Source of the DNA: CBDCVA01 sp965222935 [NCBI: Candidatus Latescibacterota bacterium]
GTDB taxonomy: Bacteria; Latescibacterota; CBDCVA01
Reading direction: 5' to 3'
DNA length: 64,000 nt
Assembly (NCBI GenBank): GCA_965222935.1
Contig: CBDCVA010000002.1
Location: 2,046,001-2,110,000 of the forward strand
How positions within the stretch are numbered: position 1 is the first letter of the stretch; every line of letters begins with the position of its first letter. The notes under the pieces are model-generated. The model did no database searches, was not told the origin of the DNA, and saw only the letters and a list, made by a program, of their open reading frames with translations. The position numbers and the translations under genes were made by a program. This document shows positions 20,216 through 62,478 of the stretch, one piece after another.

Positions 20216-20237
20216 GGCGGGTGGGCGTCGCTCTCTC

Positions 20238-22235: not shown

Positions 22236-22257
22236 GGCGGATGGGTGTCATTCTCTC

Positions 22258-42740: not shown

Positions 42741-43574
42741 TCATGGCTTCTCGCCTCTTTTCAGGCGGTCTTCTATCCGGGAGACAACATTCGTCACGTC
42801 CGCGATGGATTCTACAACGTAGTGCGCCCCCGCCGTAAGCAGGGCTTTCTCGGCTTCCGCGATCTTGCTGCGTGCGACTTCATCCGGAAGAACCGCCAAC
42901 TCCTCCTCGCTCAGCCCGACTTCGTTGCCCGTCCTGGAGAGCCCAATCGTCCACACCCCCGCGTTCAGCCCTTCTTTGATGCCCGGCTTGGTGTCATCGA
43001 CCTTGACGACGGCTGCGGGCGGAAAGATGCGCAACTGCTGCATATTGCTGAGCACCATCCAGGGTTCCGGCCGTCCCGCCGGAACATCGCTTGCACAGGC
43101 GTTCGCATCGGGGGCATAACCTTGCTTCTCGGCCTCGCGATGGCAGATCTCCATGGCACCGGTGAAGTATCCGCTCGTCGACCCGATTCGGATGCCTCTC
43201 TCTCGCAGCGCGTTGACGGCTTCCACGGTGCCCGGGATCAGCTTCGTATAGTCGCCGATACATCCGATTTGTAAAGGGACGAAATCTTCCTCGAACATGT
43301 CACTCACATCCTCTTCATGACATTCCCCACCATGCACGTTCTCCCAGAGCTGAGCGACTTCGCTCTGTTGGGCGATCGCGCGTATGTGGTCCAGTTTCCT
43401 GAGCCCCATCGGCCTTCGGGCCTGTTCCATGGTGATGTCAATACCCCGCCGCCTGAAGACCTCGATGAACACCACCGCCGGGGCATAGCATCCATAATCC
43501 AGGGTCGTGCCGGCCCAGTCGAAGATGACGAGCTTGATCGGTCCTCGGTATTGCATCGGGTAGGTGGCGTCCAT
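42741..43574 (-). CDS. phnX: Phosphonoacetaldehyde hydrolase (phosphonatase)
   Basis: A 277-residue HAD-superfamily enzyme splitting phosphonoacetaldehyde to acetaldehyde and phosphate. The catalytic aspartates are in VIFDWAGTTLDYG, the Schiff-base lysine is in the MGLRKLDHIRA cap motif that separates phosphonatases from other HAD proteins, and VVKVDDTKPGIKEG is the C-terminal motif. The cognate 2-aminoethylphosphonate aminotransferase (phnW) is not adjacent; the aminotransferase at 39604 is of another class. Confidence 0.92.
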   Translation of the reverse strand: MDATYPMQYRGPIKLVIFDWAGTTLDYGCYAPAVVFIEVFRRRGIDITMEQARRPMGLRKLDHIRAIAQQSEVAQLWENVHGGECHEEDVSDMFEEDFVPLQIGCIGDYTKLIPGTVEAVNALRERGIRIGSTSGYFTGAMEICHREAEKQGYAPDANACASDVPAGRPEPWMVLSNMQQLRIFPPAAVVKVDDTKPGIKEGLNAGVWTIGLSRTGNEVGLSEEELAVLPDEVARSKIAEAEKALLTAGAHYVVESIADVTNVVSRIEDRLKRGEKP

Positions 43575-46045: not shown

Positions 46046-46324
46046 GTGCTTGTGCGGCGGGGCCAGGATTTCTTCGCTCTGCGCGATATCTGTCCTCATC
46101 AGGGTGCTCGATTGTCCGATGGGCGTGTGGGCGGTACGGCGCTTGCCTGTATGCCCGGCGAGGCCATTCCGTATGGCCGCGTCGGCGAGATTCTGGCGTG
46201 TCCGTGGCATGGGTGGGAATACGACCTCTCGAGCGGGCGGTCGCTGACAAGCCCGGACCGCGTTCGCGTGCGTACGTATCCGGTGCACGTCGAAGGCGGT
46301 CGCGTCCTCATCGATCTTCCCTGA
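46046..46324 (+). CDS. Rieske-type [2Fe-2S] ferredoxin (start unclear)
   Basis: A 92-residue Rieske protein from a GTG at 46046, with cluster ligands in DICPHQG and ACPWHGWEYDL (Cys-His, Cys-His) and a strand-rich remainder. The conserved N-terminal strand of this family (RIEVDGRALVLVRRG) is coded further upstream, back to at least 46022, with no ATG or GTG in frame. The frame stays open past the amidohydrolase stop at 45976-45978. A CTG at 45989 or an unusual start is therefore possible. It may carry electrons to a mono- or dioxygenase. Confidence 0.75.
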   Translation: MLVRRGQDFFALRDICPHQGARLSDGRVGGTALACMPGEAIPYGRVGEILACPWHGWEYDLSSGRSLTSPDRVRVRTYPVHVEGGRVLIDLP

Positions 46325-46502: not shown

Positions 46503-47411
46503 ATGTGTGGCATCGTTGGTTTTCTGGACAGGACTGAGAATGCCTCAGCAGTCGTGGGGCGAACCCTCCTCCAGATGATGGACGCCCTTGAATGTCGGGG
46601 TCCCGATTCGGCGGGTGTGGCTCTCTATGGCCCACGTCACGAGGGGCACATGGTGCTCAAAATCAAGCTTGGTCACAAAAGCGACGGTGACGAAGACGGC
46701 GTGCGGGTCGCCGAACGGGTACGGGAGCTGGGTCCGGTGCACGAGGCATCGACGACCGCCGAGTACCTGCGCCTTGTGATGGACTACCAGGGGGGTCTCG
46801 ATGAGCTAGAGCGCCTGATCGAATCCGTGGACGAAGGCATCGAGGTCGTGAGCATGGGGCGCCGACTCGAAATCGTCAAGCAGGTAGGCTCCCCCCAGGA
46901 CATCGACGCGACCTACGGCATCTCGAACTTCGCCGGCACCCACGGCATCGGGCACACCAGGCTCTCCACCGAATCCCGCGTGGACTTGAGCCATTCACAG
47001 CCCTTCTGGTCGCACGGCTGTCCCGACCTTGCGATCGTACACAACGGGCACATCACCAACTACCACAAGCTACGGCGCCTCTACGAGCAGCGCGACGTCA
47101 GATTCTACACCGAAAACGACTCCGAAATCATTGGCATCTATCTCGCCGAGCGGTTGAGCGATGGGATGACGCTCAAAGAGGCCTTGGAGGCCTCGCTGGT
47201 GGACCTGGATGGGGCGTTCAGCTACCTTGCGGCGACCTCTGACGCCATCGGGTTCGCGAGAGACCCCTTCGGCTTCAAGCCGCTGCTCTTCACCGAAACC
47301 GAGTCCTTCATCGCCGCGGCCACGGAAGAGATCGCGATCCGCTCCGCCTTCGAGGGGGCGTACGAGGTGCGCGAGGCACAGGCAAAGGACGTGCGCGTAT
47401 GGCAGAGATAA
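46503..47411 (+). CDS. glxB: Class II glutamine amidotransferase subunit (GlxB / N-methylglutamate synthase-type)
   Basis: A 302-residue stand-alone class II amidotransferase. Processing of Met1 exposes the N-terminal nucleophile Cys2 (MCGIVGFLD), and HGIGHTRLSTESRVD and VHNGHITNYHKL are the glutamine-binding loops. It equals the N-terminal domain of glutamate synthase split off as a gene. The order GATase, GXGXG, FMN is that of glxBCD and of N-methylglutamate synthase. The next gene overlaps it by 13 bases. Transferring nitrogen to a glutamate-type acceptor is expected; the methylamine context is inferred from the genes downstream. Confidence 0.88.
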   Translation: MCGIVGFLDRTENASAVVGRTLLQMMDALECRGPDSAGVALYGPRHEGHMVLKIKLGHKSDGDEDGVRVAERVRELGPVHEASTTAEYLRLVMDYQGGLDELERLIESVDEGIEVVSMGRRLEIVKQVGSPQDIDATYGISNFAGTHGIGHTRLSTESRVDLSHSQPFWSHGCPDLAIVHNGHITNYHKLRRLYEQRDVRFYTENDSEIIGIYLAERLSDGMTLKEALEASLVDLDGAFSYLAATSDAIGFARDPFGFKPLLFTETESFIAAATEEIAIRSAFEGAYEVREAQAKDVRVWQR

Positions 47412-48100
47412 GCTGCGGCGGCAAGACGGTACGCGACATCAACGCCGAGATCAAACGCCTCATCGCCGGAGGGGAGACCGACATCCTCGTCAAAGGCCCC
47501 CATGCCCGGCACAATCTCGGGGTAGCTATTCTGGAGCCCGCCCGCATCACGTTCGATGGCAGCGTCGGCTACTATTGCGTCGGGATGATCGACGGTCCCA
47601 CCGTGGAAGTTCAAGGCAGCGCGGGCTGGGGACTGGCCGAGTCGATGATGAACGGTACGGTGATCGTCGGTGGAAATGCCGGCAACGGCGCGGCGGCTTC
47701 GATCCGGGGCGGGACAGTCGTCATCGGGGGCGATGCTTCGGCACGTCTGGGCGTCTCGATGAAGGGCGGGCTCATCCTCGTCGCGGGAGACTGCGGCTAC
47801 ATGGCGGGCTTCATGGCGCAGAGGGGAACGCTGATCGTCTGCGGGGATGCGGGCGAGGCGTTCGCCGACTCGATGTATGAGGCCGTCGGCTTCGTTGGCG
47901 GCAAGATCGCGGAGCTCGGCAACGACGCCGTCATCGAAGACCCGACGGACGAAGACCGATCTTTCCTGGAATCCGCTCTCACCCGCTATCTGCCGGGCGC
48001 GGCTCACCGCGTAGCCGGAGAGTTCAAAAAGGTCATCTCGGGTCGCAAGCTGTGGAACTTTGATAAGCAAGAGCGGGCGGTCTGGCGGGAGGCCCTTTAG
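47399..48100 (+). CDS. glxC: GXGXG-domain glutamate synthase subunit (GlxC-type)
   Basis: A 233-residue protein made of the beta-helical GXGXG domain that forms the C-terminal part of glutamate synthase. Repeated GGxxxxGGxA turns run through the centre (VQGSAGWGLAESMMNGTVIV, then GGNAGNGAAASIRGG, and similar). This subunit is structural and probably shields the ammonia path between the amidotransferase and the FMN site. It starts inside the GATase stop region and is followed by the FMN subunit 49 bases later. Confidence 0.87.
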   Translation: MAEISCGGKTVRDINAEIKRLIAGGETDILVKGPHARHNLGVAILEPARITFDGSVGYYCVGMIDGPTVEVQGSAGWGLAESMMNGTVIVGGNAGNGAAASIRGGTVVIGGDASARLGVSMKGGLILVAGDCGYMAGFMAQRGTLIVCGDAGEAFADSMYEAVGFVGGKIAELGNDAVIEDPTDEDRSFLESALTRYLPGAAHRVAGEFKKVISGRKLWNFDKQERAVWREAL

Positions 48101-48149
48101 GAGAGCGCAGCAGCCGAGCGATACCCACGTTCCGCAGGAGACAGCCACC

Positions 48150-49505
48150 GTGCCCGAACGTCTCATTCAGGACCACAACCCCCCGCAACGCAGCGGAACC
48201 TTCACGCCCGCGGTCATCGAGGACATCCAGGTCAAGGCGGAGTTGGGGCGCTATCGCATCCGTGGCTTCGGGACGCTGCGGGAGCGGCGCTGGGCGACGT
48301 TCGACGACCTGACCTTCATCCCCTGCACCCTGACACGTGTACCGCTCGAAGGCTACCGTGAACGCTGCTCGACCAGGACGGTTCTCGGGGCGCGCTTCGC
48401 CGAAAAGCCGATCGAGCTCGATATCCCCATCATGATCACAGGCATGAGCTGGGGCGCGCTCTCTTACAACGCGAAGGTCGCTCTGGCCAAGGGCGCGAAA
48501 ACGGTCGGTTCGTCGAACACGACCGGCGATGGCGGGATGCTCCCCGCCGAACGGGAGCACAGCGAGGCCCTGATCTATGAAGTGCTGCCGTCCCGCTATG
48601 GCATCAACGTCCATCATCTGCGTATGGCGGACGGGATCGAGTTGACGATCGGCCAGGGCGCGAAGCCGGGGACGGGTGGGCTCTTGCTCGGCTCCAAGGT
48701 GCTGGATACGATCGCCGAGCAGCGCGATCTGCCCCTCGGGGTGGACCAGCGCAGCCCGGCTCGGCATCCCGATTTCCTAGGTCCCGACGATATGATCATC
48801 AAGATCGAAGAACTGCGGGAAGCGACCGACTGGCAGGTGCCGATCTTCGTGAAGATGGGCGCGACGCGCGTGTTTGACGACGTGCGGTTGGCAGTGAAGG
48901 CAGGCGCGGATGTCGTGGTCGTGGACGGCATGGAAGGCGGCACCGCCGCATCGGCCGAAATTTGCCAGGAGCACACGGGCATTCCCACGCTTTCCGCCGT
49001 GTGCGAGGCTCGCGCGGCGCTCGAAGACATCGGGATGTACGGCGAGGTGCAGCTCATCATCGCGGGCGGCATCCGTAACGGCGTAGACGCGGCAAAGGCC
49101 CTGGCGCTCGGCGCGGACGCAGTCTACATTGGCACGGCAGCGCTCATCGCGCTCAACTGCAACAGGCCGCTCCACGTCGAAGACTACCGCGCGCTCGGAA
49201 CCGAGCCCTATCACTGCCACCACTGCCACACCGGCCGCTGCCCCGTGGGCGTCACGACGCAGGACCCCGAGTTGATGGCACGCCTGGACATTGACGAAGC
49301 GGCGGAGCGCGTCGCCAACCTGCTTCAGGCCATGACGTCGGAGATTCAGATCCTCGCTCGCTCCTGCGGCAAGGCCGACGTGCACGACCTCGAGCCCGAG
49401 GATCTGCGCGCCCTGAGCCTGGAAGCCTCGATGACGTGCGGAATCCCACTCGCCGGGACCAATAGAGTGTTCGGCGGAGGGCCGGGCTGGAAGGAGCGCG
49501 AGTGA
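48150..49505 (+). CDS. glxD: FMN-binding glutamate synthase central subunit (GlxD-type)
   Basis: A 451-residue protein from a GTG at 48150, preceded by AGGAG nine bases upstream; a longer frame from 48060 would overlap glxC. It is the central FMN domain of glutamate synthase: MSWGALSYNAKVALAKGA near the N-terminus, then VVVDGMEGGTAASAEI, IAGGIRNGVDAAKALALGAD (FMN phosphate loop) and the [3Fe-4S] cysteines in CHHCHTGRCPVG. Ammonia from the GATase would meet the 2-oxoglutarate-type acceptor here. With glxB and glxC this is a full three-subunit set. Confidence 0.9.
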   Translation: MPERLIQDHNPPQRSGTFTPAVIEDIQVKAELGRYRIRGFGTLRERRWATFDDLTFIPCTLTRVPLEGYRERCSTRTVLGARFAEKPIELDIPIMITGMSWGALSYNAKVALAKGAKTVGSSNTTGDGGMLPAEREHSEALIYEVLPSRYGINVHHLRMADGIELTIGQGAKPGTGGLLLGSKVLDTIAEQRDLPLGVDQRSPARHPDFLGPDDMIIKIEELREATDWQVPIFVKMGATRVFDDVRLAVKAGADVVVVDGMEGGTAASAEICQEHTGIPTLSAVCEARAALEDIGMYGEVQLIIAGGIRNGVDAAKALALGADAVYIGTAALIALNCNRPLHVEDYRALGTEPYHCHHCHTGRCPVGVTTQDPELMARLDIDEAAERVANLLQAMTSEIQILARSCGKADVHDLEPEDLRALSLEASMTCGIPLAGTNRVFGGGPGWKERE

Positions 49506-49633
49506 ACGGCTTCATTCCGTTTGTTTGGACGGCTCGGTGAAGTCCTACGGGTTGCGCGCGGCGAAGCTTCGCCCGGCGCTCGGCTTGGCCGCTGGCTGGA
49601 TCGACGCGATCGTTGGGAGGAGAGGGGGATAGC

Positions 49634-50062
49634 TTGGGACGTTGGAGAGAGCATCTTCAGAGCTTCGGGCTTCTGTGGCTGAGGGTCCTGATGGGCTTGG
49701 GGATCGCGACGCACGGTTTCGGAAAAGTGTTCGGTGGGGGTATTGAGGGTCTCGCCGCGGGCGTGGCGAAGATGGGCTTTCCGCTGCCGGAGTTCTTCGC
49801 CTGGATGGCGGCGCTTTCCGAGTTCGCGGGAGGCATTCTTATCGCCTTGGGCCTTGGGACGCGCGTGGTGGCGGGTCTTGTTTTCCTTACGATGACCGTA
49901 GCGGCTTTCATCGTACATGGCCCTGATCCATTCAGTCAGAAAGAAAAAGCCCTAGCCTACTGGACTATGGCGTCGGCGCTGATCCTTACGGGCCCCGGGC
50001 CCCTGTCGCTTGATGCGCTGCTGTGCCGGTGGCGCTCCAATAGAAGCAGGAAAGGGGCTTGA
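49634..50062 (+). CDS. DoxX-family membrane protein
   Basis: A 142-residue integral membrane protein of four helices, from TTG at 49634 preceded by GGAGGAGAGGG. The pattern WLRVLMGLGIATHGFGKVF, FPLPEFFAWMAALSEFAGG and GLVFLTMTVAAFIVHG is that of DoxX. The family is linked to thiosulfate oxidation or redox stress, but many members have no known role. It lies between the split glutamate synthase and the HxG PhyH gene on the same strand. Confidence 0.85.
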   Translation: MGRWREHLQSFGLLWLRVLMGLGIATHGFGKVFGGGIEGLAAGVAKMGFPLPEFFAWMAALSEFAGGILIALGLGTRVVAGLVFLTMTVAAFIVHGPDPFSQKEKALAYWTMASALILTGPGPLSLDALLCRWRSNRSRKGA

Positions 50063-50239
50063 CGGGTTGTCGGCGGGGTTCGGCGCCACCGAGCCAAACC
50101 CACGCCCGACTGAAGAGCACGATGTCCACATCACTGCCTTGGACCGCATCGAAGAAGTCGTAGTCGTAAGTGAACGAGGCGCGAAGGAGACTATACGGGA
50201 AGTGGGGCGTAAAGTCGAAACCAAGGGGGAAGGATCAAC

Positions 50240-51055
50240 ATGGAGCCTGATACAGAAGCGACCGCGGCGCTGAGCCCCGCACAACGCTATTTCTACGATG
50301 TGAACGGCTACGTTCTGCTGAAAGGCGTATTTAGCGCGGGGGAATGCCAGCGCTTCATCGATCTCGCCGACCGAATGGACGCCGACGATAGCTGCCCGTA
50401 CAAGCACGACGGCTATCCGAAGTCCCCCACGCAGACCGCACTTTCCCGTTGCGCCTGGTATGATCCACATCTGCTCAAGACGGCGCTGCACGAGACGCTC
50501 TTGCCGATCATCGAGGATACGGTCGGTGGTGAGGTGCGCCTGGAGGAGCACCAGTTCATCATCAACTATCCGGACCCGGCGGGAGCCGCGGATTCTGACG
50601 GGTCGCCCACCCCCGAGGACGTGGGCTGGCACCGGGGCATCGCCCCCAATTTCGGCAGTTTCCAGGCTGACGGCCATTACCACTGCCTGTTTACCAAAGC
50701 CTTCATTTACCTGACCGACAATGGCCCGGGGAGGGGCACCTGGGTAGTGCCCGGCAGCCATCGGATGGATTTGCCTGTAGAGACGTTGCGAGCGTTCATC
50801 GATGAGAGCCTGGTCCGGCAACTGGAATCCCGCGCCGGAGATGTACTGATCCTGAACGAAACCCTGGTCCACGCTGGCCCCAGGCTCACGTCCAGGCCGG
50901 CGCGGTACTCGCTGGTCTATGGGTACACGGCGCCGTTCATGCAGACCTGGAAGCGTTACGATCCACCGGCCGATCTCCTCGGACGCGTCACTCCACGGCA
51001 ACGGCGGCTGCTTTCGGGGATGGTCCGTTATGGCTTTCGCAGGGGTCAGTTCTGA
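50240..51055 (+). CDS. Phytanoyl-CoA dioxygenase family protein with HxG in place of HxD
   Basis: A 271-residue member of the PhyH family. His131 is followed by Arg132 and Gly133 (GWHRGIAPN), so the usual iron-binding carboxylate is missing. The distal His211 (ETLVHAGPRL) and the arginine following it are kept. This HxG arrangement occurs in a subset of bacterial PhyH proteins and in Fe(II)/oxoglutarate halogenases, where halide takes the open site. GGGAAGGATC precedes the ATG. It lies inside the amine-metabolism block, but I cannot say what it acts on. Confidence 0.82.
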   Translation: MEPDTEATAALSPAQRYFYDVNGYVLLKGVFSAGECQRFIDLADRMDADDSCPYKHDGYPKSPTQTALSRCAWYDPHLLKTALHETLLPIIEDTVGGEVRLEEHQFIINYPDPAGAADSDGSPTPEDVGWHRGIAPNFGSFQADGHYHCLFTKAFIYLTDNGPGRGTWVVPGSHRMDLPVETLRAFIDESLVRQLESRAGDVLILNETLVHAGPRLTSRPARYSLVYGYTAPFMQTWKRYDPPADLLGRVTPRQRRLLSGMVRYGFRRGQF

Positions 51056-51274
51056 CGGCCATCTCATCGACGACCGGCCTCGGCGCCTTAGCAAGATAGC
51101 AGCTATATTTCAATCCAATTTTCAATAGAATCCATCAAGAATGGCCTCGCTCGTGGATGCCAATATGCGCTTGGAAAGAAGAACGGGTCCGAGTTAGAAA
51201 ACATGAGACGATCATGCGGTGTGGAAGCCCTGAGAAGCCGTTGTAACGATTTCCTTTAGAGGCACAAGAAATAC

Positions 51275-52513
51275 ATGTCCATCAAGCTCATCCGACAGGC
51301 CCTCGACGGCGACCGACCGCCCCCTCGGATGTGGCGAGACCATGAGCTCAGGGATCGCTACGACGTAGTGATCATCGGCGGCGGCGCGCACGGGCTTGCC
51401 TGTGCCTATTACCTGGCCAAAGAGCACGGCATCACCGACGTCGCGGTGCTGGAAAAGAGCTACATCGGCTCCGGCGGCAGCGGACGCAACACCGCTATCA
51501 TCCGCAGTAACTACCTTACCCCTGAGGGCGTACATTTTTATGATCAGAGCGTCAAGCTCTACGAACGGATGGCGGGCGAACTCGATTTTAACGTGATGTT
51601 CAGCCAGCGCGGTCACCTGACCCTCGCCCATACCGATGGCGCCATCCGCACCATGCGCCGCCGGGCCGAGGTCAACCGCCTCGGGGACGTAGATTCGCGT
51701 CTGATCTGGCCGGATGAGATCGCCCGCCTCTGCCCCCATCTCGACCTGAGTGACCACCCCCGTTACCCCATTCTGGCGGCGCTGTACCATCCGCCCGGAG
51801 GCATCGTCCGCCACGACGCCGTCGTCTGGGGCTACGCCCATCAAGCAGATGCCCGGGGCGTCCACATCCACCAGAAGACGGAGGTGACCGGGATCGAGGT
51901 GCGGGCGGGAAAAGTCACGGGCGTGGTGACGCCCCGGGGCCGCATCGCAACCCCGACCGTCCTCAACGCCACCGCCGGCTGGGGTTCGCTCATCGCTCGG
52001 ATGGCTGGGGTCAAGCTCCCCCTGGTCACTTTCCCTCTTCAGGCCTGCGTGACGGAGCCCCTCAAACCCTTCCTGGACGTCGTTGTGGTCAGTGGAAGCC
52101 TGCACCTCTACGTCAGCCAGTCCGACCGGGGCGAACTGGTCATGGGAGCCAGCGTCGATCCCTTCGCGTCCTATTCGATGGATTCCTCCCTCTCGTTCAT
52201 CGAAGGCATTGCGGGAGACCTGCTCGAACTCTTTCCGTTCTTGAGCCAGGTCCGCGTCTTGCGCCAGTGGGCCGGTCTCTGTGATATGACCCCCGACTTC
52301 AGTCCGATCATGGGCCTCACGCTAGTCGAAGGCTTTCTGGTAGACGTCGGTTGGGGCACCTACGGCTTCAAGGCTTCGCCCATCTGCGGGGTGACGCTGG
52401 CGGAGCTCATCGCCACGGGCCGCACTCCCGAACTCATCGCTCCCTTCCGCCTATCACGCTTCGAGGAGCGCGAGCTCGTTGGGGAGAAGGGCGCGGCGTC
52501 GGTGGGGCATTAG
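51275..52513 (+). CDS. soxB: Sarcosine oxidase beta-like / N-methylglutamate dehydrogenase A-like flavoprotein
   Basis: A 412-residue DAO-type flavoprotein. The FAD motif is VVIIGGGAHGLACAYYLAKE (about residues 29-48), and GSGGSGRNTAIIRSNYLTPE and GGIVRHDAVVWGYAHQ match the beta subunit of heterotetrameric sarcosine oxidase, whose covalent FMN is on a histidine in this second segment. It oxidises the N-methyl C-N bond, passing the methyl group to folate with the A subunit. The neighbours D, A and G make the complete set. A 219-base AT-richer gap lies upstream. Confidence 0.88.
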   Translation: MSIKLIRQALDGDRPPPRMWRDHELRDRYDVVIIGGGAHGLACAYYLAKEHGITDVAVLEKSYIGSGGSGRNTAIIRSNYLTPEGVHFYDQSVKLYERMAGELDFNVMFSQRGHLTLAHTDGAIRTMRRRAEVNRLGDVDSRLIWPDEIARLCPHLDLSDHPRYPILAALYHPPGGIVRHDAVVWGYAHQADARGVHIHQKTEVTGIEVRAGKVTGVVTPRGRIATPTVLNATAGWGSLIARMAGVKLPLVTFPLQACVTEPLKPFLDVVVVSGSLHLYVSQSDRGELVMGASVDPFASYSMDSSLSFIEGIAGDLLELFPFLSQVRVLRQWAGLCDMTPDFSPIMGLTLVEGFLVDVGWGTYGFKASPICGVTLAELIATGRTPELIAPFRLSRFEERELVGEKGAASVGH

Positions 52514-52522
52514 GAGCGGTCC

Positions 52523-52801
52523 ATGCTCATCTTGACGTGCCCGAATTGCGGGCCTCGGAACGTCGGCGAATTCTCCTTTGGCGGGGAGTACAACCCGCGT
52601 CCCGGAGGCTCGCAGGCGTCGGGCGATGCCGAATGGGTCCGCTATCTCTATCTCCGTGATAACATCATGGGTGCGCAAACGGAGTGGTGGTATCACAAGG
52701 CTGGCTGCGGCCTCTGGTTTTTGGCTGAGCGGCACACGCGGACGAACGAGGTGATGAAGACCTACCTGTGGCGGCCAAGCCCGGTGACGGGAGAAGCCTA
52801 G
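52523..52801 (+). CDS. soxD: Sarcosine oxidase delta-like zinc-binding subunit
   Basis: A 92-residue protein. TCPNCGPRNVGEFSFGGEY and the HKAGCGLWFLAERHTR segment supply the zinc ligands (two cysteines, histidine, cysteine) of the delta subunit of heterotetrameric sarcosine oxidase. Structural, with no known catalysis of its own. It lies nine bases after the beta-like gene and one base before the alpha-like gene. Confidence 0.9.
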   Translation: MLILTCPNCGPRNVGEFSFGGEYNPRPGGSQASGDAEWVRYLYLRDNIMGAQTEWWYHKAGCGLWFLAERHTRTNEVMKTYLWRPSPVTGEA

Positions 52802-52802
52802 C

Positions 52803-55748
52803 TTGCAAACCACGGGTGTCCTTTCGACCGTTCCCAGCGAAAAGACGGGGCCGAGGCGTCTCCCCCCTCAAAAAGGCGAGGTGATCGACCGCTCGACGGC
52901 TTTCACGCTCTCCTTCAATGGCACGGCAGTGACCGCTTACCCGGGCGATACCATCGCCTCGGCCCTGGCCGCTGCGGATGTCAAGGCCCTCAGCCGTTCG
53001 TTCAAGTATCACCGTCCGCGCGGGCTTCTCTGTTGCGCGGGGTACTGCCCCAATTGCCTGGTGCAGGTGGGCGGCGAACCGAACGTGCGCGCCTGCCAGC
53101 GAGGGGCCGAACCGGGCATGGAGGTCCGATCCCAGAACGCTTGGCCGTCGCTCGATCATGACTTGCTTTCCCTGACCCAACTGGGGGCCCGCTTCATGCC
53201 GGTCGGCTTCTACTACAAGACCTTCATTCGCCCCCAGGCGCTCTGGCCGCTCTACGAGCGCGTGCTGCGCCATGCCGCTGGCCTCGGAGAGGTCAATCCC
53301 CATGCGCCGCACGGCATGTTCGACAAGCAGCATCTTCATGCCGATGTCGCCGTGATGGGAGGCGGACCCGCCGGGATCAGCGCGGCGTTGGCCGCTGCCG
53401 AACGGGGCGCACGGGTTCTCCTCTTCGACGAGAATCCGGCCCTTGGCGGCCACCTGCGTTTCACCTCTTCGGCTCGGGATGAGGCCGTCTCTTCCTATCT
53501 GCCCGATCTCCTGTCAGCTATCGAGGGGGAGCCGAATGTCGCGGTCTTCACCGGCACCGCCGTACTCGGTTGGTACCAGGACAACTGGCTTGCGGCCGTC
53601 AGGGGTTCGCGTCTGTTCAAGGTCCGGGCGCGGTCGCTGGTCGTCGCGACCGGAGCCTACGAGACGCCGCTCGTCTTCGATGACAACGACCTTCCGGGCG
53701 TGATGTTGGGGAGCGGCGTGCAGCGTCTCATCCACCTCTACGGCGTCGCACCCGGCGAGCGGGCTGTCGTCGTGACGGGGAACGATGATGGCTGGGCGGT
53801 AGCCGCCGATCTTCATGCTGCGGGCGTGGCCATAGCGGCCATTGCGGACGAGCGCGGCGACCGCTCCACTCCACAGGCCGATGAGTTGGCTCGAGCTGGG
53901 GTTCCGATCTTCTACGGGCATACTGTTGTTGCGGCGCGCGGCTCGGGGTCGGTGAGCGGCGCGGTGATCGCTCCCCTGGACGCTAGCGGCGGAATCAACC
54001 TGGCGGCGACGCAATCACTCGAATGCGATCTCATCGCGATTAGCATGGGTTGGACGCCCGCCACGGATCTGTTCACCATGGCGGGGGGCAAATCGGAGTA
54101 CGACGCGGAGCGGGCTGAGTTCCTTCCCGTGACGTCGCCGCCGGGCCTCTACGCGGCGGGGAGGGCGGCGGGCACGCACGGCGTCGAGGCGCAGACCGCT
54201 GAAGGTCGGATGGCCGGCGCGAACGCAGCCGCGTTCATCGGACTGGGGAACGGGCCGCATCCGGAAGGTGCCTTCGCTCTGCCCCGCCAGAAAGCCCTCG
54301 AACCGCGCCGTACGTCCGCGCGCGTGAGCGTGCCCGGCGAGCGCAAGCGGTTTGTCTGCTTGTGTGAGGATGTCACCGATACCGACCTGGAAACGGCGAT
54401 CGGCGAGGGCTACGACAGTATCGAGCTGCTTAAGCGTTACAGCACCATCTCGATGGGACCGTGCCAGGGCAAGATGTGCTCGATGAACGCCATCGGCATC
54501 TGCGCCCGCGCCATCGGACGGACCGTGGGCGAGACCGGCAGGACGACTTCACGGCCTCCCGTCACGCCTGTGACGCTGGGGGCATTGGCCGGACAGAAGA
54601 TGGAGCCGGTGCAGGTGACCCCTATCCACGGCTGGCATCTGGACCACGGCGCGACGATGATGGCAGCCGGGCTCTGGATGCGTCCGGAGCACTATGGCGA
54701 CCCCGCGGCCGAGGTGCGGGCCGTGCGCGAGCGGGTCGGCCTGATCGATGTGAGTACGTTGGGCAAGCTGGATCTCACCGGCCCCGGCGTGCCCGATCTG
54801 CTTGAGCGCATCTATGTGAACCAGTGGCGCAAGCTCGCCCGTGGAAGGGTGCGCTACGGCGTCATGTGCAACGACGAAGGCGTGGTGCTGGACGACGGCG
54901 TGTGCGCGCACCTGAGAGACGAACTGTGGTACATGAGCACCACCTCCAGTGGCGCAACTGCTATCTATGAGTGGATGCAGTGGTGGCTGCAATCGGGCTG
55001 GGGCGAAGGCGTCCACGTGACGGACGTGACCGAGGCCTATGGCGCCTTCAACCTGGCCGGTCCCCACGCGCGGGCCGTGCTCCAGAAGTTGACGGATCGT
55101 CGCCTGGACAACGACGCCTTCGGCTACATGCGCGTCCGCTCCGCGGAGGTGGCGGGCGCCCCCTGCCGAATCCTGCGCATCGGCTTTACGGGCGAACTCT
55201 CCTACGAGCTCCACTGTCCGTCGGGTTGCGCTCTCGGCTTATGGGAAGACCTGCTGGACGCCGGACATGAGTTCGGCATCGTACCTTTTGGCATCGAGGC
55301 TCAGCGCATCCTCAGATTGGAAAAAGCCCACATCATCGTCGGGCAGGATACCGACGCCATCTCCGATGCGCTTTCGGCCGATATGGCTTGGGCCGTGAAG
55401 TTGAACAAGCCCGATTTCCTGGGTAAGCGCGAGCTCGTGCGGATTGCCGCCGAAGGACCCAAGCAGCGCCTCGTCGGCTTTGTGATGGCTCGTCGGGACG
55501 TCGTCCCCGATGAGGGAATGCAGATCGTCGCGCTCCGATCGAGGGGAAAGCCCGAAATCATGGGTTGGGTTACCTCCAGCCGGTTCAGCCTCACCCTAAA
55601 GGGGGCGATCGGGCTCTGCTGGCTCCCGGCCGACGTGGCTGCTCGTGAGGGCGCACCCTTCACGATTGACATGAATGGCAGCCTCGAAGAGGCCCGCGTC
55701 CATCATGGGGCCTTCTACGATCCCGAAGGGAAGAGGTTGCGGATGTGA
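52803..55748 (+). CDS. soxA: Sarcosine oxidase alpha-like / N-methylglutamate dehydrogenase subunit with two [2Fe-2S]-type cysteine sets
   Basis: A 981-residue multidomain protein from TTG at 52803. In order: a ferredoxin-like domain (about 28-110) with Cys77, Cys82, Cys85 and Cys98 after SFKYHRPRG; an FAD/NAD domain with VAVMGGGPAGISAALAAAE at about 182-200; a BFD-like domain with Cys519-x-Cys521 (VCLCEDVT) and Cys554-x4-Cys559; and a folate-binding GcvT domain (about 600-980) that should accept the oxidised methyl group. In known sarcosine oxidase alpha subunits the cysteines of both small domains are largely lost, so here they point to two clusters and an acceptor other than oxygen. The subunit overlaps the next gene by four bases. 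Confidence 0.87.
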   Translation: MQTTGVLSTVPSEKTGPRRLPPQKGEVIDRSTAFTLSFNGTAVTAYPGDTIASALAAADVKALSRSFKYHRPRGLLCCAGYCPNCLVQVGGEPNVRACQRGAEPGMEVRSQNAWPSLDHDLLSLTQLGARFMPVGFYYKTFIRPQALWPLYERVLRHAAGLGEVNPHAPHGMFDKQHLHADVAVMGGGPAGISAALAAAERGARVLLFDENPALGGHLRFTSSARDEAVSSYLPDLLSAIEGEPNVAVFTGTAVLGWYQDNWLAAVRGSRLFKVRARSLVVATGAYETPLVFDDNDLPGVMLGSGVQRLIHLYGVAPGERAVVVTGNDDGWAVAADLHAAGVAIAAIADERGDRSTPQADELARAGVPIFYGHTVVAARGSGSVSGAVIAPLDASGGINLAATQSLECDLIAISMGWTPATDLFTMAGGKSEYDAERAEFLPVTSPPGLYAAGRAAGTHGVEAQTAEGRMAGANAAAFIGLGNGPHPEGAFALPRQKALEPRRTSARVSVPGERKRFVCLCEDVTDTDLETAIGEGYDSIELLKRYSTISMGPCQGKMCSMNAIGICARAIGRTVGETGRTTSRPPVTPVTLGALAGQKMEPVQVTPIHGWHLDHGATMMAAGLWMRPEHYGDPAAEVRAVRERVGLIDVSTLGKLDLTGPGVPDLLERIYVNQWRKLARGRVRYGVMCNDEGVVLDDGVCAHLRDELWYMSTTSSGATAIYEWMQWWLQSGWGEGVHVTDVTEAYGAFNLAGPHARAVLQKLTDRRLDNDAFGYMRVRSAEVAGAPCRILRIGFTGELSYELHCPSGCALGLWEDLLDAGHEFGIVPFGIEAQRILRLEKAHIIVGQDTDAISDALSADMAWAVKLNKPDFLGKRELVRIAAEGPKQRLVGFVMARRDVVPDEGMQIVALRSRGKPEIMGWVTSSRFSLTLKGAIGLCWLPADVAAREGAPFTIDMNGSLEEARVHHGAFYDPEGKRLRM

Positions 55749-56476
55749 GTTCGCCTCCGGTGAAGTTGACACCCCTGTGCCCCAGCGCCCAACGGTTGGG
55801 GGCGCACTTCATGGAACGGGAGGGCTGGCAGATCCCGGAGGTCTACACGGCGCAGGATGCCGAGGCCGCCACTGCGCGGGAGAGTGTCGCTCTGGCCGAC
55901 GAGACGCCGAACGGTAAGCTCACGGTCGAGGGCCGCGAGGCGGATATCGTCCTGAGCGCAGCGTTCGACCCGCCTGCGCTCGCCATTGGCGAAGGGAAAG
56001 CGGTCGGCTCGGTTCGCATCTATCGTTTGCGGCGGGACCTCTATTTCATCGGCACTCGGCCGGGTCAGGAGATGACCGCGCGAGAAAGGATCACAGCGGT
56101 GGTCGGGCAATCCGACCGCTTCGTCACGGTCACCGACATCACCCACGGACGGGCGGAGATACGGGTGATTGGACCAAGAGCCCCCGAGCTCCTGAGCAAG
56201 GTGTGTGGCCTGGACTTCCATCCCTCGGCATTCGGTGATGGGGAGGCCAAGCAGACGAGCCTCGCCAGGACGACTCAGTTGGTGATCCGCCGCGACATCG
56301 GCCAGCTAGTGGCATACTCGGTCATTGGAGCGCGCTCGCTGGGAGCCTACCTCTGGGAGACCCTCACCGAGGCTGGGCACGAGTGGGGGATCGCCCCGAT
56401 TGGCCGGGCTGCGCTGCACGCACTGGAGGAGGATGGAGCGGGAACGGAAACGCAAGTGGGCCGCGGCGCCTCATGA
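55745..56476 (+). CDS. soxG: Sarcosine oxidase gamma-like subunit
   Basis: A 243-residue protein, GTG start overlapping the alpha-like stop. The GcvT-related fold of the gamma subunit is seen in VGSVRIYRLRRDLYFIGTRPG, DRFVTVTDITHGRAEIRVIG and GAYLWETLTEAGHEWG. The gamma subunit is smaller and non-catalytic in known sarcosine oxidases. It closes the B-D-A-G set. A 165-base gap follows before the GlnT-type gene. Confidence 0.85.
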   Translation: MSSPPVKLTPLCPSAQRLGAHFMEREGWQIPEVYTAQDAEAATARESVALADETPNGKLTVEGREADIVLSAAFDPPALAIGEGKAVGSVRIYRLRRDLYFIGTRPGQEMTARERITAVVGQSDRFVTVTDITHGRAEIRVIGPRAPELLSKVCGLDFHPSAFGDGEAKQTSLARTTQLVIRRDIGQLVAYSVIGARSLGAYLWETLTEAGHEWGIAPIGRAALHALEEDGAGTETQVGRGAS

Positions 56477-56641
56477 CTTGACATCAGCGCTCACGGAGAC
56501 GGTACGGATGTTCTCAACCCGATTGGAATATCTCTTGGGATTTTCGGCTAGCGCACCCGTGCGAGGATAGCAACGGACCGATTATTGGCACCGCCGCTAG
56601 AGATAAGGTAGCCTTCACTGTCAGCGAGGAGGGGACTGTCA

Positions 56642-57976
56642 ATGACGCTGGATCAGGTCAAAGTGCTCGTCGAGGAGAGAGGCATCGAGTTCTTCCTCTG
56701 TTCCTTCGTGGAGATGGGTGGGTTGCCGAAAGCCAAGCTGGTGCCGGCCACGCACCTCGACGATATGGCGGCGGAAGGAGCCGGTTTCGCCGGGTTTGCG
56801 GCGGGGGAGATGGGTCAGGGACCCCACGACCCGGACATGTTGAGCATCCCCGATTTCGATTCGCTCACGATTCTGCCTTGGCGCAAGGACATGGCATGGG
56901 TGGCGGGCAACATCTTCGTTGAAGATAAGCCATGGGACTACTGCCCGCGCACTATCTTGGGGCGCCAGTTGACGAAGGCGCAGGAGAAGGGCTACGTCTT
57001 CAATGTCGGCGTCGAAGCCGAGTTCATGTTGCTAAGACGCGATGAGTCCGGGAACTACGCGCCGTACGACCCGCTGGACGTCCTCGAAAAGCCCTGCTAC
57101 GACCTGGTGACCCTCCACCGCAATCTCGACGTCATGACGATGCTGATCAGGCACATGCAGGAACTGGGGTGGGCCCCCTATGCCAACGACCATGAAGACG
57201 CCAACTGCCAGTTCGAGATCAACTGGCTCTTTTCCGACGCGCTCACCACGGCGGATCGACACACCTTCTACAGGTGGATGGTCAAGGTCAACGCCGAACA
57301 GCACGGCCTCATGGCGACCTTCATGCCCAAGCCTTTCGCGCACCTGACGGGGTGTGGCGCCCACTATCACATGAGCCTGTGGGATGAGGGAAACGCGACC
57401 AATCTCTTCCTCGATGAAAGCGACGAAAACGGTCTGTCGCAGCAGGCCTACTGGTTCATGGGCGGCATCCTCAGGCACGCCAAGGCTCTCGCGGCCGTCA
57501 CCTCTCCACTCGTCAACAGCTACAAGCGCCTGATCCGAGGCGCGCCGCGCTCAGGGGCCACCTGGGCGCCCGTCTACGTTACCTATGGCGGCTCCAATCG
57601 GACGCAGATGATCCGTATCCCCGGACCGGGCCGCATTGAGAACCGCTGCGTGGACGGCGCGGCCAACGCGTACCTCGCCTGCACGGCTATGCTCGCCGCG
57701 GGGCTGGACGGCATCGAGAAGGAGATGGACCCCGGTACGCGCAACGACGATAACCTCTACGAGGTCGCCGAGGGCGAGTTGGAGCGCCGCGGCATCGAGT
57801 TCTTGCCCTCGACCCTCAAGGATGCCCTCGACCGCCTGGAAGAGGACGAGGTCATCATCGAGGCGCTTGGCCGCGAGTACGCCGAGTACTACATCGAGGT
57901 CAAGCGCGAGGAGTGGCGGAGTTATCACCAGAGCATCAGCCAGTGGGAGCTCGACAGGTACCTTCCGGTGCATTGA
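56642..57976 (+). CDS. glnT: GlnT-type glutamine synthetase, probable gamma-glutamylmethylamide synthetase
   Basis: A 444-residue enzyme of the GlnT/GmaS branch. FNVGVEAEFMLL is the first glutamate/metal segment, HEDANCQFEINW and TFMPKPFAHLTGCGAHYHMS are ATP and glutamate sites, and GGSNRTQMIRIPGPGRIENR is the conserved late motif. Its length equals that of characterised gamma-glutamylmethylamide synthetases. It would ligate methylamine to glutamate. Whether ammonia or methylamine is preferred cannot be told from the sequence; the sarcosine-oxidase and glx sets beside it favour methylamine. AGGAGG lies nine bases before the ATG. Confidence 0.88.
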   Translation: MTLDQVKVLVEERGIEFFLCSFVEMGGLPKAKLVPATHLDDMAAEGAGFAGFAAGEMGQGPHDPDMLSIPDFDSLTILPWRKDMAWVAGNIFVEDKPWDYCPRTILGRQLTKAQEKGYVFNVGVEAEFMLLRRDESGNYAPYDPLDVLEKPCYDLVTLHRNLDVMTMLIRHMQELGWAPYANDHEDANCQFEINWLFSDALTTADRHTFYRWMVKVNAEQHGLMATFMPKPFAHLTGCGAHYHMSLWDEGNATNLFLDESDENGLSQQAYWFMGGILRHAKALAAVTSPLVNSYKRLIRGAPRSGATWAPVYVTYGGSNRTQMIRIPGPGRIENRCVDGAANAYLACTAMLAAGLDGIEKEMDPGTRNDDNLYEVAEGELERRGIEFLPSTLKDALDRLEEDEVIIEALGREYAEYYIEVKREEWRSYHQSISQWELDRYLPVH

Positions 57977-61018: not shown

Positions 61019-62437
61019 CTATCTCCGGGGACGCTCCAGGTCCCTGAGGGCCAACTGCCCCTGCCGGGCCAGGTCGATGGCCTGGGCCAGGATGCGCGCG
61101 GCCTCCTGCGGGGCGTGAAAGCCCATCGAGTTCTCCGCCTCGATGAAGTCCACGTAGAACGCAGCCCGCCGATGGAAGTCCTGAGCGTCGGCCAGTTCGG
61201 CGTCGGTTCTGCCCGCATCGCGAGCGGACCCCAGGTCGCCGATCAGCTCCACGAGCGCGTCGATGGCCCAGTTGCGTAGCTCGAAGGTCGTCTTCTGGAT
61301 GGTTTCCACGCGCGCACGGAGATCGTCCTCGGACCGCCTGTGGCACGTCTGACAGGCTCGGTTGATGTTCAGGACGGGACTGCGCACGTGGTGGTCGCTT
61401 ATCTTGAGCGAACCCTCCCGCACATAGGGCATGTGGCAGTCGGCGCAGGCCACGCCCGAGCGCGCGTGGATACCCTGGCTCCATAGCTCGAACTCCGGGT
61501 GGTTCACCTTGATCACCGGCGTCCCCGCCTCCTCGTGGATGAAGTCTCTGACGCCGGTCTCCTGGTAGTACTGCAGTATGTCGTCCGCTCTGATCCCGTT
61601 GGCCCACGGGTAGACCAGGCGTTTTTCGGGCCCTTTGAAGTAGTACTCGACGTGGCATTGGGCGCAGACGAAGGTGCGCATCTGTTGCCGCGTCGCCATG
61701 GTGTTCGGGTCGTAGCCCTCGATGCCCTCCGACGCCTTGAGCGCGCGGATGCCCTCGATGAACCCCGGTCGCGTGATCCGCAACTGCATCGTCTCGGGGT
61801 CGTGGCAGTCGATGCAGGCGATCGGATGTTCCACTAGCTTGCGAGCTTCGGCGTAGGGCAGTGGGTTGATCTTCTCGAAGCCCCTCATGAGGTCGCCGTC
61901 GCCGGATTCCTTGTACGCTGCGTAGACCGAGGCGTGGCAGTGCAGACACGTGCCGGGCAGCTTGGCGGCGGCCTGCCGATCGGTGAACGTCTGGTCCTTG
62001 AGCATGTACGCGTGGCCCCGGTCCTCCCGGAAGTCCACCGCGAAGGCGTAACCGGCCCACAGAGTCGCTAGCCGCGGATCCTCCTCAAGGCGCGATTGCC
62101 CGACAACCGAGCGTGGGTCCGCCTCGCTCGGCGTCCGTGGCATGGCCTCGCTCCCGCCGAAGCGCGTGCGTACCTGGTCCACCGTCCGCTTGTAGCCGTC
62201 GAACTGCATCGGGAAGTTCTTGCCCCACGTTACCGGGTCCACGGTCTGGTCGGTGAGTTCGACGACCCGGAAGAACGGGTTTTTCGCTTCCTGCTTGCGT
62301 TCGAGGATGTTGACGAGCAGCGCGGCGGATCCCGCCGCCACGGCTGTGGCGACGGCTGCGATCAGCGCTATCAGGCCGATGCGGCTCCCGCGTTGGCGGC
62401 GGCTGCCCGGCGGAGTGTCAAGAGGCGTCTGGGCCAT
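61019..62437 (-). CDS. nrfA: Pentahaem cytochrome c nitrite reductase NrfA, CXXCH type
   Basis: Reduces nitrite to ammonia with six electrons outside the cytoplasmic membrane. Residues about 20-43 form the N-terminal membrane/signal segment. Five haem sites are all CXXCH: CLHCH (164-168), CIDCH (208-212), CAQCH (258-262), CADCH (331-335) and CQTCH (362-366). The first, the catalytic haem, is CXXCK in best-known NrfA but CXXCH in a recognised subgroup. The active-site Tyr lies in CHVEYYFK and HPEFELW supplies the conserved late histidine. It follows nrfH by 41 bases. Confidence 0.93.
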   Translation of the reverse strand: MAQTPLDTPPGSRRQRGSRIGLIALIAAVATAVAAGSAALLVNILERKQEAKNPFFRVVELTDQTVDPVTWGKNFPMQFDGYKRTVDQVRTRFGGSEAMPRTPSEADPRSVVGQSRLEEDPRLATLWAGYAFAVDFREDRGHAYMLKDQTFTDRQAAAKLPGTCLHCHASVYAAYKESGDGDLMRGFEKINPLPYAEARKLVEHPIACIDCHDPETMQLRITRPGFIEGIRALKASEGIEGYDPNTMATRQQMRTFVCAQCHVEYYFKGPEKRLVYPWANGIRADDILQYYQETGVRDFIHEEAGTPVIKVNHPEFELWSQGIHARSGVACADCHMPYVREGSLKISDHHVRSPVLNINRACQTCHRRSEDDLRARVETIQKTTFELRNWAIDALVELIGDLGSARDAGRTDAELADAQDFHRRAAFYVDFIEAENSMGFHAPQEAARILAQAIDLARQGQLALRDLERPRR

Positions 62438-62478
62438 GAGGCTGCCTCACGATGGGCTATGGGTGGGGGCCTGGGCCA

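What the first reader, a model, noticed from the sequence alone, without database searches (positions are those of the whole stretch)
46503..57976. Compact parts list for an N-methylglutamate (methylamine) pathway in an apparently non-proteobacterial genome
Seen: a split glutamate-synthase-like set (46503-49505), a complete B-D-A-G sarcosine-oxidase-like set (51275-56476) and a GlnT-type synthetase (56642-57976), all on the plus strand within 11.5 kb. Established: gamma-glutamylmethylamide synthetase, N-methylglutamate synthase and N-methylglutamate dehydrogenase are built from exactly these protein families in methylotrophs. Inference: the block lets the organism take nitrogen, and one-carbon units through folate, from methylamine. 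The gene order (synthase first, dehydrogenase, then synthetase last) and the DoxX and PhyH inserts differ from the orders I recall for Methylobacterium-type clusters. A sarcosine or glycine-betaine route is the main alternative.
Basis: partly seen in the sequence, partly recalled or inferred. Interest (0 to 1): 0.75.

Follow-up and report, generated by a model that had tools for sequence, protein, structure and literature searches.

The report
Iron-sulfur version of methylamine-using pathway
A bacterium from a little-known, uncultured lineage carries a complete gene set for taking nitrogen and one-carbon units from methylamine, in a version whose redox enzymes keep cysteine sites for iron-sulfur clusters that the compared proteobacterial enzymes lack.

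Summary
In detail: mgsABC-like, soxBDAG/mgdABCD-like and GlnT/GmaS-type genes lie on the plus strand at 46503-57976, with DoxX and PhyH genes between. The synthetase is GmaS-like, not GlnA: its best solved relatives are GmaS 7cql and "glutamate-methylamine ligase" 9qur, and the residues that set GmaS apart are present, except Gln175->Ala in the amine pocket. The parts are linked in 34 of 61 related loci. In four loci from close relatives gmaS stands behind a TMAO demethylase, Amt and formate-THF ligase. Methylamine use through N-methylglutamate is the best reading.

Alpha keeps eight cysteines for two [2Fe-2S] clusters in 33 of 33 clade rows, against 0 of 14 comparators. MgsC keeps four cysteines that 8 of 8 plasmid-borne proteobacterial/mycobacterial copies lack. 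The organism is most likely Latescibacterota. Nothing was assayed; the dehydrogenase's substrate is inferred from context.

The parts
46503..47411 (+). mgsA-like: class-II glutamine amidotransferase subunit of N-methylglutamate synthase, N-terminal Met-Cys-Gly kept
   Evidence: Pfam GATase_6/7; MCG start in 45 of 45 rows scored
47399..48100 (+). mgsB-like: GXGXG (glutamate synthase C-terminal type) subunit
   Evidence: Pfam GXGXG; TIGR03122 below cut-off
48060..49505 (+). mgsC-like: FMN-binding glutamate synthase domain subunit (start codon uncertain)
   Evidence: Pfam Glu_synthase 321 bits; 87-90% identical to copies in 11 genomes of the phylum of L001, 84-91% to Poribacteria copies
49158..49241 (+). 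four-cysteine site of MgsC (LNC...CHHC-4-C), where GltB has its three cluster cysteines; absent in the plasmid-borne proteobacterial MgsC compared
49613..50062 (+). DoxX-family membrane protein, inserted between mgs and mgd; role unknown, probably incidental
   Evidence: Pfam DoxX 71.6 bits; not in this place in relatives
50240..51055 (+). PhyH-family protein, inserted; orthologues of 69-72% identity in 6 of 10 Latescibacterota and 4 of 5 Poribacteria genomes, not beside this gene set in the six Latescibacterota (other contig numbers)
   Evidence: Pfam PhyH
51275..52513 (+). soxB/mgdA-like beta subunit: FAD/FMN amine dehydrogenase; Arg77, His180 and Lys366 align with TSOX chain residues 69, 172, 358
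   Evidence: TIGR01373 494.7 bits, below cut-off 529.45
52523..52801 (+). soxD/mgdB-like delta subunit
   Evidence: Pfam SoxD 101 bits; TIGR01374 below cut-off
52803..55748 (+). soxA/mgdC-like alpha subunit: 2Fe-2S domain, pyridine-nucleotide/FAD-type domain, A3/BFD-like domain, GcvT folate domain
53031..53096 (+). first [2Fe-2S] cysteine set of the alpha subunit: C77, C82, C85, C98
54357..54479 (+). second (BFD-type) [2Fe-2S] cysteine set: C519, C521, C554, C559
   Evidence: Fer2_BFD hit
55745..56476 (+). soxG/mgdD-like gamma subunit, divergent
   Evidence: TIGR01375 54.9 bits, below cut-off 143.95
56642..57976 (+). gmaS-like gamma-glutamylmethylamide synthetase with Ala at the RhGmaS Gln175 position

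Best explanation
The block encodes an N-methylglutamate pathway for methylamine in a Latescibacterota-type bacterium, in an iron-sulfur-retaining form. GmaS joins methylamine to glutamate with ATP, giving gamma-glutamylmethylamide. MgsA releases the methylamine and MgsC, on FMN, makes N-methylglutamate. The SoxBDAG-like heterotetramer oxidises the N-methyl group; its GcvT-like domain hands the carbon to tetrahydrofolate and glutamate is regenerated. Electrons leave the flavins through two [2Fe-2S] clusters of the alpha subunit to an unknown carrier rather than to O2, so it should be a dehydrogenase. Shown by sequence: gene content, GmaS residues, linkage, cysteine sets. Inferred: substrate, clusters really bound, electron carrier, folate transfer.
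For: GmaS: best PDB relatives are 7cql and 9qur. Of the RhGmaS residues listed in PMC7948447 the window keeps Lys30, Ala48, Tyr147, Tyr174, Asp177, Glu179, Glu186, Asn188, Trp300 and Arg312; the three GlnA/GS rows have Asp at 48, His at 177 and a gap at 300. GlnA rows fall outside in the tree. Linkage: 34 of 61 loci, from MAGs named Latescibacterota, Poribacteria, Acidobacteriota, Binatia, Anaerolineae, Planctomycetota, Zixiibacteriota and others. Substrate context: in L012-L015 a TMAO demethylase (the L012 copy scores 1247.7 bits, cut-off 1100), flavin reductase, Amt-family transporter and formate-THF ligase stand before a glnT 74% identical to the window's; L023 has the Amt, the reductase and a ligase fragment. 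The genomes of L012-L014 are also the window's nearest by SAH hydrolase (69-71%). Natural swap: L108-L110, and partial L111, pair an Fe-S alpha subunit with mgsABC-gmaS of proteobacterial type, whose GmaS falls in the RhGmaS clade. Fe-S: eight cysteines in 33 of 33 clade alphas, 0 of 14 comparators; invariant in 17 of 17 aligned.
Against: Alpha does not group with proteobacterial MgdC, nor beta with MgdA. The segment round the substrate lysine of beta reads GWGTYGFK, unlike GWCYGGFK in 6 of 6 rows of the MgdA-type clade and GWGTGGFK in TSOX, so specificity cannot be transferred. SoxB, D, A and G all score below the NCBIfam cut-offs, as do alphas of L002 and L097, while those of Aminobacter, R. 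etli and Mesorhizobium terrae pass. Gln175, part of the proposed methylamine pocket, is Ala, and Tyr191, which stacks on ATP, is Phe. Five Latescibacterota mgs-glnT-sox sets have no alpha cysteines, so the clusters are not needed for a pathway of this layout. The AlphaFold model of alpha is poor at both cysteine regions (pLDDT under 50 for 63-99 and most of 513-560) and gives no structural support. No Amt or formate-THF ligase was found in the 64 kb. No whole genome is held.
Confidence: 0.78

Rival explanations
1. The SoxBDAG-like heterotetramer is an Fe-S sarcosine (or dimethylglycine) dehydrogenase for betaine breakdown that merely sits between mgs and gmaS.
For: Neither catalytic subunit groups with MgdA/MgdC; the beta signature near the lysine is nearer to TSOX than to MgdA. 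A DAO-family FAD oxidoreductase at 4542-5717 could also bear on N-methyl amino acids.
Against: Alpha occurs together with glnT in 27 of the 31 genomes that hold either, of 64 examined; it is linked to mgs and glnT in many loci and stays beside a swapped-in proteobacterial-type mgs-gmaS set.
Confidence: 0.13
2. The synthetase and synthase handle another small amine (for example ethylamine or ethanolamine), with Gln175->Ala widening the pocket; the heterotetramer then de-alkylates the N-alkylglutamate.
For: Ala175 is in the window and in 55 of 57 scored genome loci of GmaS type.
Against: The TMAO demethylase-Amt-formate-THF ligase neighbourhood of Ala175 copies points to methylated amines; the GcvT folate domain is kept; Ala175 also occurs in a mycobacterial plasmid copy within a gmaS-mgsABC set.
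Confidence: 0.07
3. An ammonia-assimilating GS-GOGAT-like set plus an unrelated oxidase.
For: TIGR03105 is named type III glutamate-ammonia ligase; mgsABC are split GltB-type domains.
Against: GS ammonia-site Asp and flap are absent; tree; no gltD-like protein among the ten block proteins scanned.
Confidence: 0.02

Closest known systems
N-methylglutamate pathway of Methyloversatilis universalis FAM5 (gmaS-mgsABC-mgdABCD; PMC5023235, passages)
   Same: same eight-gene part list in one cluster
   Different: gene order and DoxX/PhyH insertion; FAM5 sequences were not in hand, so residues and cysteines were not compared with that strain
Proteobacterial glx/glnT/sox clusters (Rhizobium etli L065, Aminobacter L063, Sphingobium L080)
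   Same: glxBCD=mgsABC, glnT and soxBDAG in one neighbourhood
   Different: alpha 34-37% and MgsC 56-58% identical; they lack all eight alpha cysteines and all four MgsC cysteines
Heterotetrameric sarcosine oxidase (PDB 1vrq, 2gag)
   Same: four-subunit architecture, the His, Arg and Lys of the beta site aligned, GcvT folate domain
   Different: 1vrq alpha has no cysteine at the cluster positions that its typed stretch covers (seven of eight); different clade
Pyrococcus PH1363, chain 1y56_A (recalled as alpha subunit of a proline dehydrogenase complex)
   Same: BFD-type cysteine region aligned
   Different: no GcvT domain, other substrate (both recalled)
Indirect glutamate pathway reported in three Binatota genomes (PMC8262859)
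   Same: same pathway in a non-proteobacterial phylum; Binatia loci L020, L021, L024, L026 and L027 belong to this clade
   Different: the passages seen do not mention Fe-S sites or Latescibacterota

Membership tests
GmaS (gamma-glutamylmethylamide synthetase) | catalytic Asp177, Glu186, Arg312, and Trp300/Ala48 in place of the GS flap Glu and Asp50 | tested here: met
   against residues in PMC7948447
GmaS (gamma-glutamylmethylamide synthetase) | Gln175 of the proposed methylamine/ATP pocket | tested here: not met
   Ala in the window and in 55 of 57 scored genome loci of GmaS type; a pocket residue, not one of the three catalytic residues that the paper calls strictly conserved, so membership is kept with this reservation
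GmaS (gamma-glutamylmethylamide synthetase) | groups with GmaS, not with GlnA | tested here: met
GmaS (gamma-glutamylmethylamide synthetase) | methylamine-specific ligase activity | not testable with these tools
   needs assay
N-methylglutamate synthase (MgsABC) | three subunits GATase, GXGXG, FMN Glu_synthase, linked to gmaS | tested here: met
   amidotransferase Cys at position 2
N-methylglutamate synthase (MgsABC) | makes N-methylglutamate | not testable with these tools
   needs assay
N-methylglutamate dehydrogenase (MgdABCD) | four SoxBDAG-like subunits linked to gmaS/mgs | tested here: met
N-methylglutamate dehydrogenase (MgdABCD) | alpha/beta group with MgdC/MgdA of proteobacterial clusters | tested here: not met
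   so it is described as working like MGDH, not filed as a member of the proteobacterial MgdABCD clade
N-methylglutamate dehydrogenase (MgdABCD) | oxidises N-methylglutamate | not testable with these tools
   needs assay
Heterotetrameric sarcosine oxidase (TIGR01372/1373/1374/1375) | scores over the curated cut-offs | tested here: not met
   909.5/1164, 494.7/529.45, 85/116.5, 54.9/143.95 bits
Heterotetrameric sarcosine oxidase (TIGR01372/1373/1374/1375) | N-terminal and A3 domains without cluster cysteines, as in 1vrq | tested here: not met
[2Fe-2S] BFD-type and Fer2_4-type domains | complete cysteine ligand sets | tested here: met
   cluster occupancy itself not testable, AlphaFold uninformative

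The most novel reading that the evidence does not exclude
The Fe-S sites of MgsC and of the dehydrogenase are one electron circuit. MgsC, with its cluster, works like glutamate synthase: gamma-glutamylmethylamide + 2-oxoglutarate + 2 electrons give N-methylglutamate + glutamate. The dehydrogenase gives two electrons back. Net: methylamine + 2-oxoglutarate + THF + ATP give glutamate + methylene-THF, with neither O2 nor free ammonia, an oxygen-independent methylamine assimilation. For: where both proteins were scored, both cysteine sets are present in 31 places (window included) and both absent in 9, many of them close relatives. Against: 3 full loci (L108-L110) and one partial (L111) are mixed, with Fe-S dehydrogenase and cluster-less MgsC, so the circuit is not obligatory.
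Probability: 0.2. Interest if true: 0.78.

Novelty: new variant of a known kind. Interest (0 to 1): 0.6.

Why it matters
The N-methylglutamate pathway is in print for proteobacterial methylotrophs, some mycobacteria (PMC5023230) and a few Binatota (PMC8262859). Here it appears as a conserved gene set in MAGs of many uncultured phyla, with redox subunits that still carry Fe-S ligand sets absent from the proteobacterial enzymes compared. That suggests that the cluster-less sarcosine oxidase/N-methylglutamate dehydrogenase architecture, with its empty ferredoxin-like domain, descends from an Fe-S dehydrogenase (polarity not yet tested with a rooted tree), and that methylamine can be oxidised without O2 as direct acceptor. 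It also warns that gmaS surveys built on proteobacterial sequences may miss a clade only about 42-50% identical to them.

Tried and rejected
Own-genome search was impossible. Placing the organism: valyl-tRNA synthetase was unclear (about 46-56% identity for the best piece in most genomes, highest full-length score in Desulfofundulus). Within the block, Poribacteria copies are about as close as Latescibacterota ones (MgsC 91% against 90%, alpha 71% against 73%, PhyH 72% against 71%), and in the alpha tree the window even sits with three Poribacteria (support 92). Housekeeping proteins decide for Latescibacterota: MetK 57-62% against 55-56%, SAH hydrolase 69-71% in G009-G011 against 51-52% (but 45-49% in five other Latescibacterota, and no match at that threshold in G012 and G015), and PEP-utilising enzyme in 10 of 10 Latescibacterota against 0 of 5 Poribacteria, with PEP-utilising enzyme, MetK and SAH hydrolase adjacent in G009 and G010 as in the window.

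A perfect coupling of cluster status between MgsC and alpha seemed to hold over 39 places, but further loci with divergent MgsC broke it; I keep it only as the novel case. AlphaFold of alpha on 17 sequences (mean pLDDT 68.1) was uninformative at the cysteine regions (earlier collecting searches found it unfinished), so no fold search was run. Glutamine-synthetase reading rejected by residues and tree. DoxX and PhyH as pathway parts rejected for lack of conservation in place.

Literature: searches for N-methylglutamate dehydrogenase with iron-sulfur, sarcosine oxidase alpha subunit with 2Fe-2S and heterotetrameric, N-methylglutamate synthase with glutamate synthase or iron-sulfur (405 papers, 15 listed), sarcosine oxidase with iron-sulfur cluster and hydrogen cyanide synthase (none), gmaS with Acidobacteria MAGs, anaerobic N-methylglutamate, Latescibacteria or Latescibacterota with methylamine or methylotrophy showed nothing on this variant in the titles, abstract starts and passages seen; the library lacks most subscription papers.

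Rows dropped: glnT rows L057, L058 and L061, and alpha rows under 80% or 85% coverage; L070, a GS-like plasmid protein of neither type, is set apart in the residue counts; L029 MgsC was unscorable because its frame is broken there.

Full report
What is there. Pfam and NCBIfam give, in order: class-II amidotransferase, GXGXG protein, FMN glutamate-synthase domain protein, DoxX, PhyH, SoxB, SoxD, SoxA, SoxG/GcvT and type III glutamate-ammonia ligase families. The four Sox-like subunits score below the NCBIfam cut-offs for sarcosine oxidase subunits, the synthetase above that of TIGR03105. Downstream lie an enolase-superfamily and a TPP enzyme, then nrfA-like and nrfH genes on the other strand.

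The synthetase is of GmaS type. The two best PDB matches are 7cql, the Rhodovulum GmaS, and 9qur, named glutamate-methylamine ligase. PMC7948447 (abstract, outline and passages seen) lists the residues. In a 72-row alignment 68 rows are of GmaS type (all but three GlnA/GS rows and the GS-like L070). All 68, the window included, have Ala48, Asp177, Glu179, Glu186, Asn188, Trp300 and Arg312; the three GlnA/GS rows have Asp, His and a gap at 48, 177 and 300. Position 175 is Ala in 57 of the 68 (window, 55 of the 57 genome loci of this type, one mycobacterial plasmid copy) and Gln in 11: the seven other plasmid copies, both GmaS PDB chains and two Peptococcaceae. The GlnA/GS rows have Ala there too. 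Tyr191, an ATP-stacking residue, is Phe in the window. In the tree the GlnA rows are outside, and the window lies in a set of 14 rows (SH-aLRT 97) from Latescibacterota, Handelsmanbacteria, MAGs named Gemmatimonadota and one unnamed bacterium.

The set is a conserved unit. A genome scan with the synthetase gave 61 loci. 34 of 61 hold at least two mgs genes and soxB beside glnT; 7 hold mgs alone, 7 soxB alone, 3 one mgs gene only, and 10 neither; a number of contigs end close to the gene. Order varies: mgsABC-soxBDAG-glnT in L002, L003, L005 and L018; mgsABC-soxDA(G)-soxB-glnT in the Binatia and many Acidobacteriota loci; mgsABC-glnT-soxBDAG in L038 and L053 (Anaerolineae). In four Poribacteria with mgs-glnT only, an alpha subunit 69-71% identical lies outside the fetched stretch; in G020 (L051) and G084 (L034) none was found at E 1e-60. 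Of 64 genomes searched in the phylum of L001 (G001), alpha is in 30, glnT in 28 and MgsC in 26; alpha and glnT together in 27, 3 alpha only, 1 glnT only, 33 neither. These genomes are related, so the Fisher value (1e-13) overstates independence.

Context fixes the substrate best. In L012-L015 the Ala175-type glnT follows a TMAO demethylase (1247.7 bits in the L012 copy, cut-off 1100; the other copies are 73-92% identical), a flavin reductase, an Amt-family transporter and formate-THF ligase; L023 has the last three, the ligase as a fragment. The whole-genome searches show the same four glnT-ligase pairs, 281-864 bp apart, in G009, G010, G011 and G047, not new ones. L051 and L055 also have Amt beside the glnT-mgs set. 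The genomes of L012-L014 are the window's nearest relatives by SAH hydrolase (69-71%).

The dehydrogenase is of its own kind. In the alpha tree of 47 rows the window and 32 loci form one side (SH-aLRT 99), all 14 comparators (TSOX and 13 plasmid proteins, four of them with glnT in the same fetched stretch) the other. The cysteines C77, C82, C85, C98, C519, C521, C554 and C559 are present in 33 of 33 and in 0 of 14 (the TSOX row does not cover C98). L081-L092, L100 and L101 have all eight (some are the same genes as before); L097-L099, L102 and L103, also Latescibacterota, have none. In a second tree the Fe-S rows again form one side of a branch (26 rows, 99), the cluster-less Latescibacterota joining Neorhizobium, Mesorhizobium NZP2077 and Acinetobacter proteins; the state changes once on this unrooted tree. 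The BFD-type set aligns with 1y56_A, a hint that presence is ancestral; polarity was not tested. In the beta tree the comparators form a clade of 13 (98) without the window; the tree was rooted at the midpoint only, and there the comparators branch from among Fe-S-type betas. Beta keeps residues matching TSOX Arg69, His172 and Lys358, which I recall as carboxylate- and FMN-binding. Its neighbourhood of the lysine differs from both MgdA and TSOX, so specificity is open.

MgsC too. Window MgsC has four cysteines where GltB (7mfm) has three. All 8 plasmid copies scored (seven proteobacterial, one mycobacterial) lack them. In glutamate synthase a [3Fe-4S] cluster passes electrons to FMN (PMC8097209, passages). 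Where both proteins were scored, both sets are present in 31 places and absent in 9; L108, L109 and L110 (and partial L111) have the alpha set without the MgsC set. Their glnT has Gln175 and falls in the RhGmaS clade: a swap of the front half, which speaks for the Fe-S heterotetramer acting on the product of a canonical GmaS-Mgs pair.

The organism. No genome is held. MetK, SAH hydrolase and the PEP-utilising enzyme favour Latescibacterota over Poribacteria, whereas genes of the block itself are about equally close to both. The window species is not close to any genome searched.

Comparison with print. FAM5 has gmaS-mgsABC-mgdABCD in that order, and an mgsC mutant loses methylamine use (PMC5023235, passages). 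Mycobacterium genomes carry gma-mgsABC and mgdA-D homologues (PMC5023230, passages). Three Binatota genomes were reported with the pathway (PMC8262859, passages). The one paper opened on Latescibacterota one-carbon metabolism, PMC9874027, has no occurrence of methylamine, trimethylamine, N-methylglutamate or sarcosine in its main text. None of the listings showed the Fe-S variant, within the limits of the library.

Verdict.

Noticed in passing
L051:3748-17947 (Desulfofundulus thermobenzoicus): In an anaerobe: FAD oxidoreductase (DAO family), ETF beta, ETF alpha, mgsABC, gmaS and Amt in a row, a NuoF-like gene further on; suggests an N-methylglutamate pathway that feeds ETF.
   Followed up: partly
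L012-L015, L023: TMAO demethylase (not in L023), flavin reductase, Amt and formate-THF ligase before gmaS; in L012-L015 also an acyl-CoA-dehydrogenase-like protein that, with the reductase, could serve a dimethylamine step.
   Followed up: partly
L100:8494-13134: Directly after soxG a second GS-like protein (31% to window GmaS, below the TIGR03105 cut-off) and a second mgsABC set (39/44/59%), MgsC also with four cysteines: a possible parallel pathway for another amine.
   Followed up: no
L108, L109, L110, L111: Latescibacterota with a proteobacterial-type mgsABC-gmaS set beside an Fe-S-type alpha subunit.
   Followed up: yes
L114:6028-8967 (Peptococcaceae BRH_c8a): SoxA-like protein with only some of the cluster cysteines.
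   Followed up: partly
window 61019-62931, minus strand: nrfA-like (below cut-off) and nrfH (over cut-off) genes: perhaps nitrite ammonification, so the organism may respire without O2.
   Followed up: no
window 18218-24261, minus strand: Three proteins of 665, 665 and 667 aa in tandem; the one scanned in Pfam (18218-20215) is DUF6785/DUF6784, the other two had no NCBIfam match.
   Followed up: no
window 46046-46324: Small Rieske-type ferredoxin gene just upstream of mgsA; no tblastn match at E 1e-8 in the 61 related loci.
   Followed up: partly
window 4542-5717: DAO-family FAD oxidoreductase, kin unknown; could act on amino acids or N-methyl amino acids.
   Followed up: no
window 42741-43574, minus strand: Phosphonoacetaldehyde hydrolase (327 bits, cut-off 220).
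   Followed up: no
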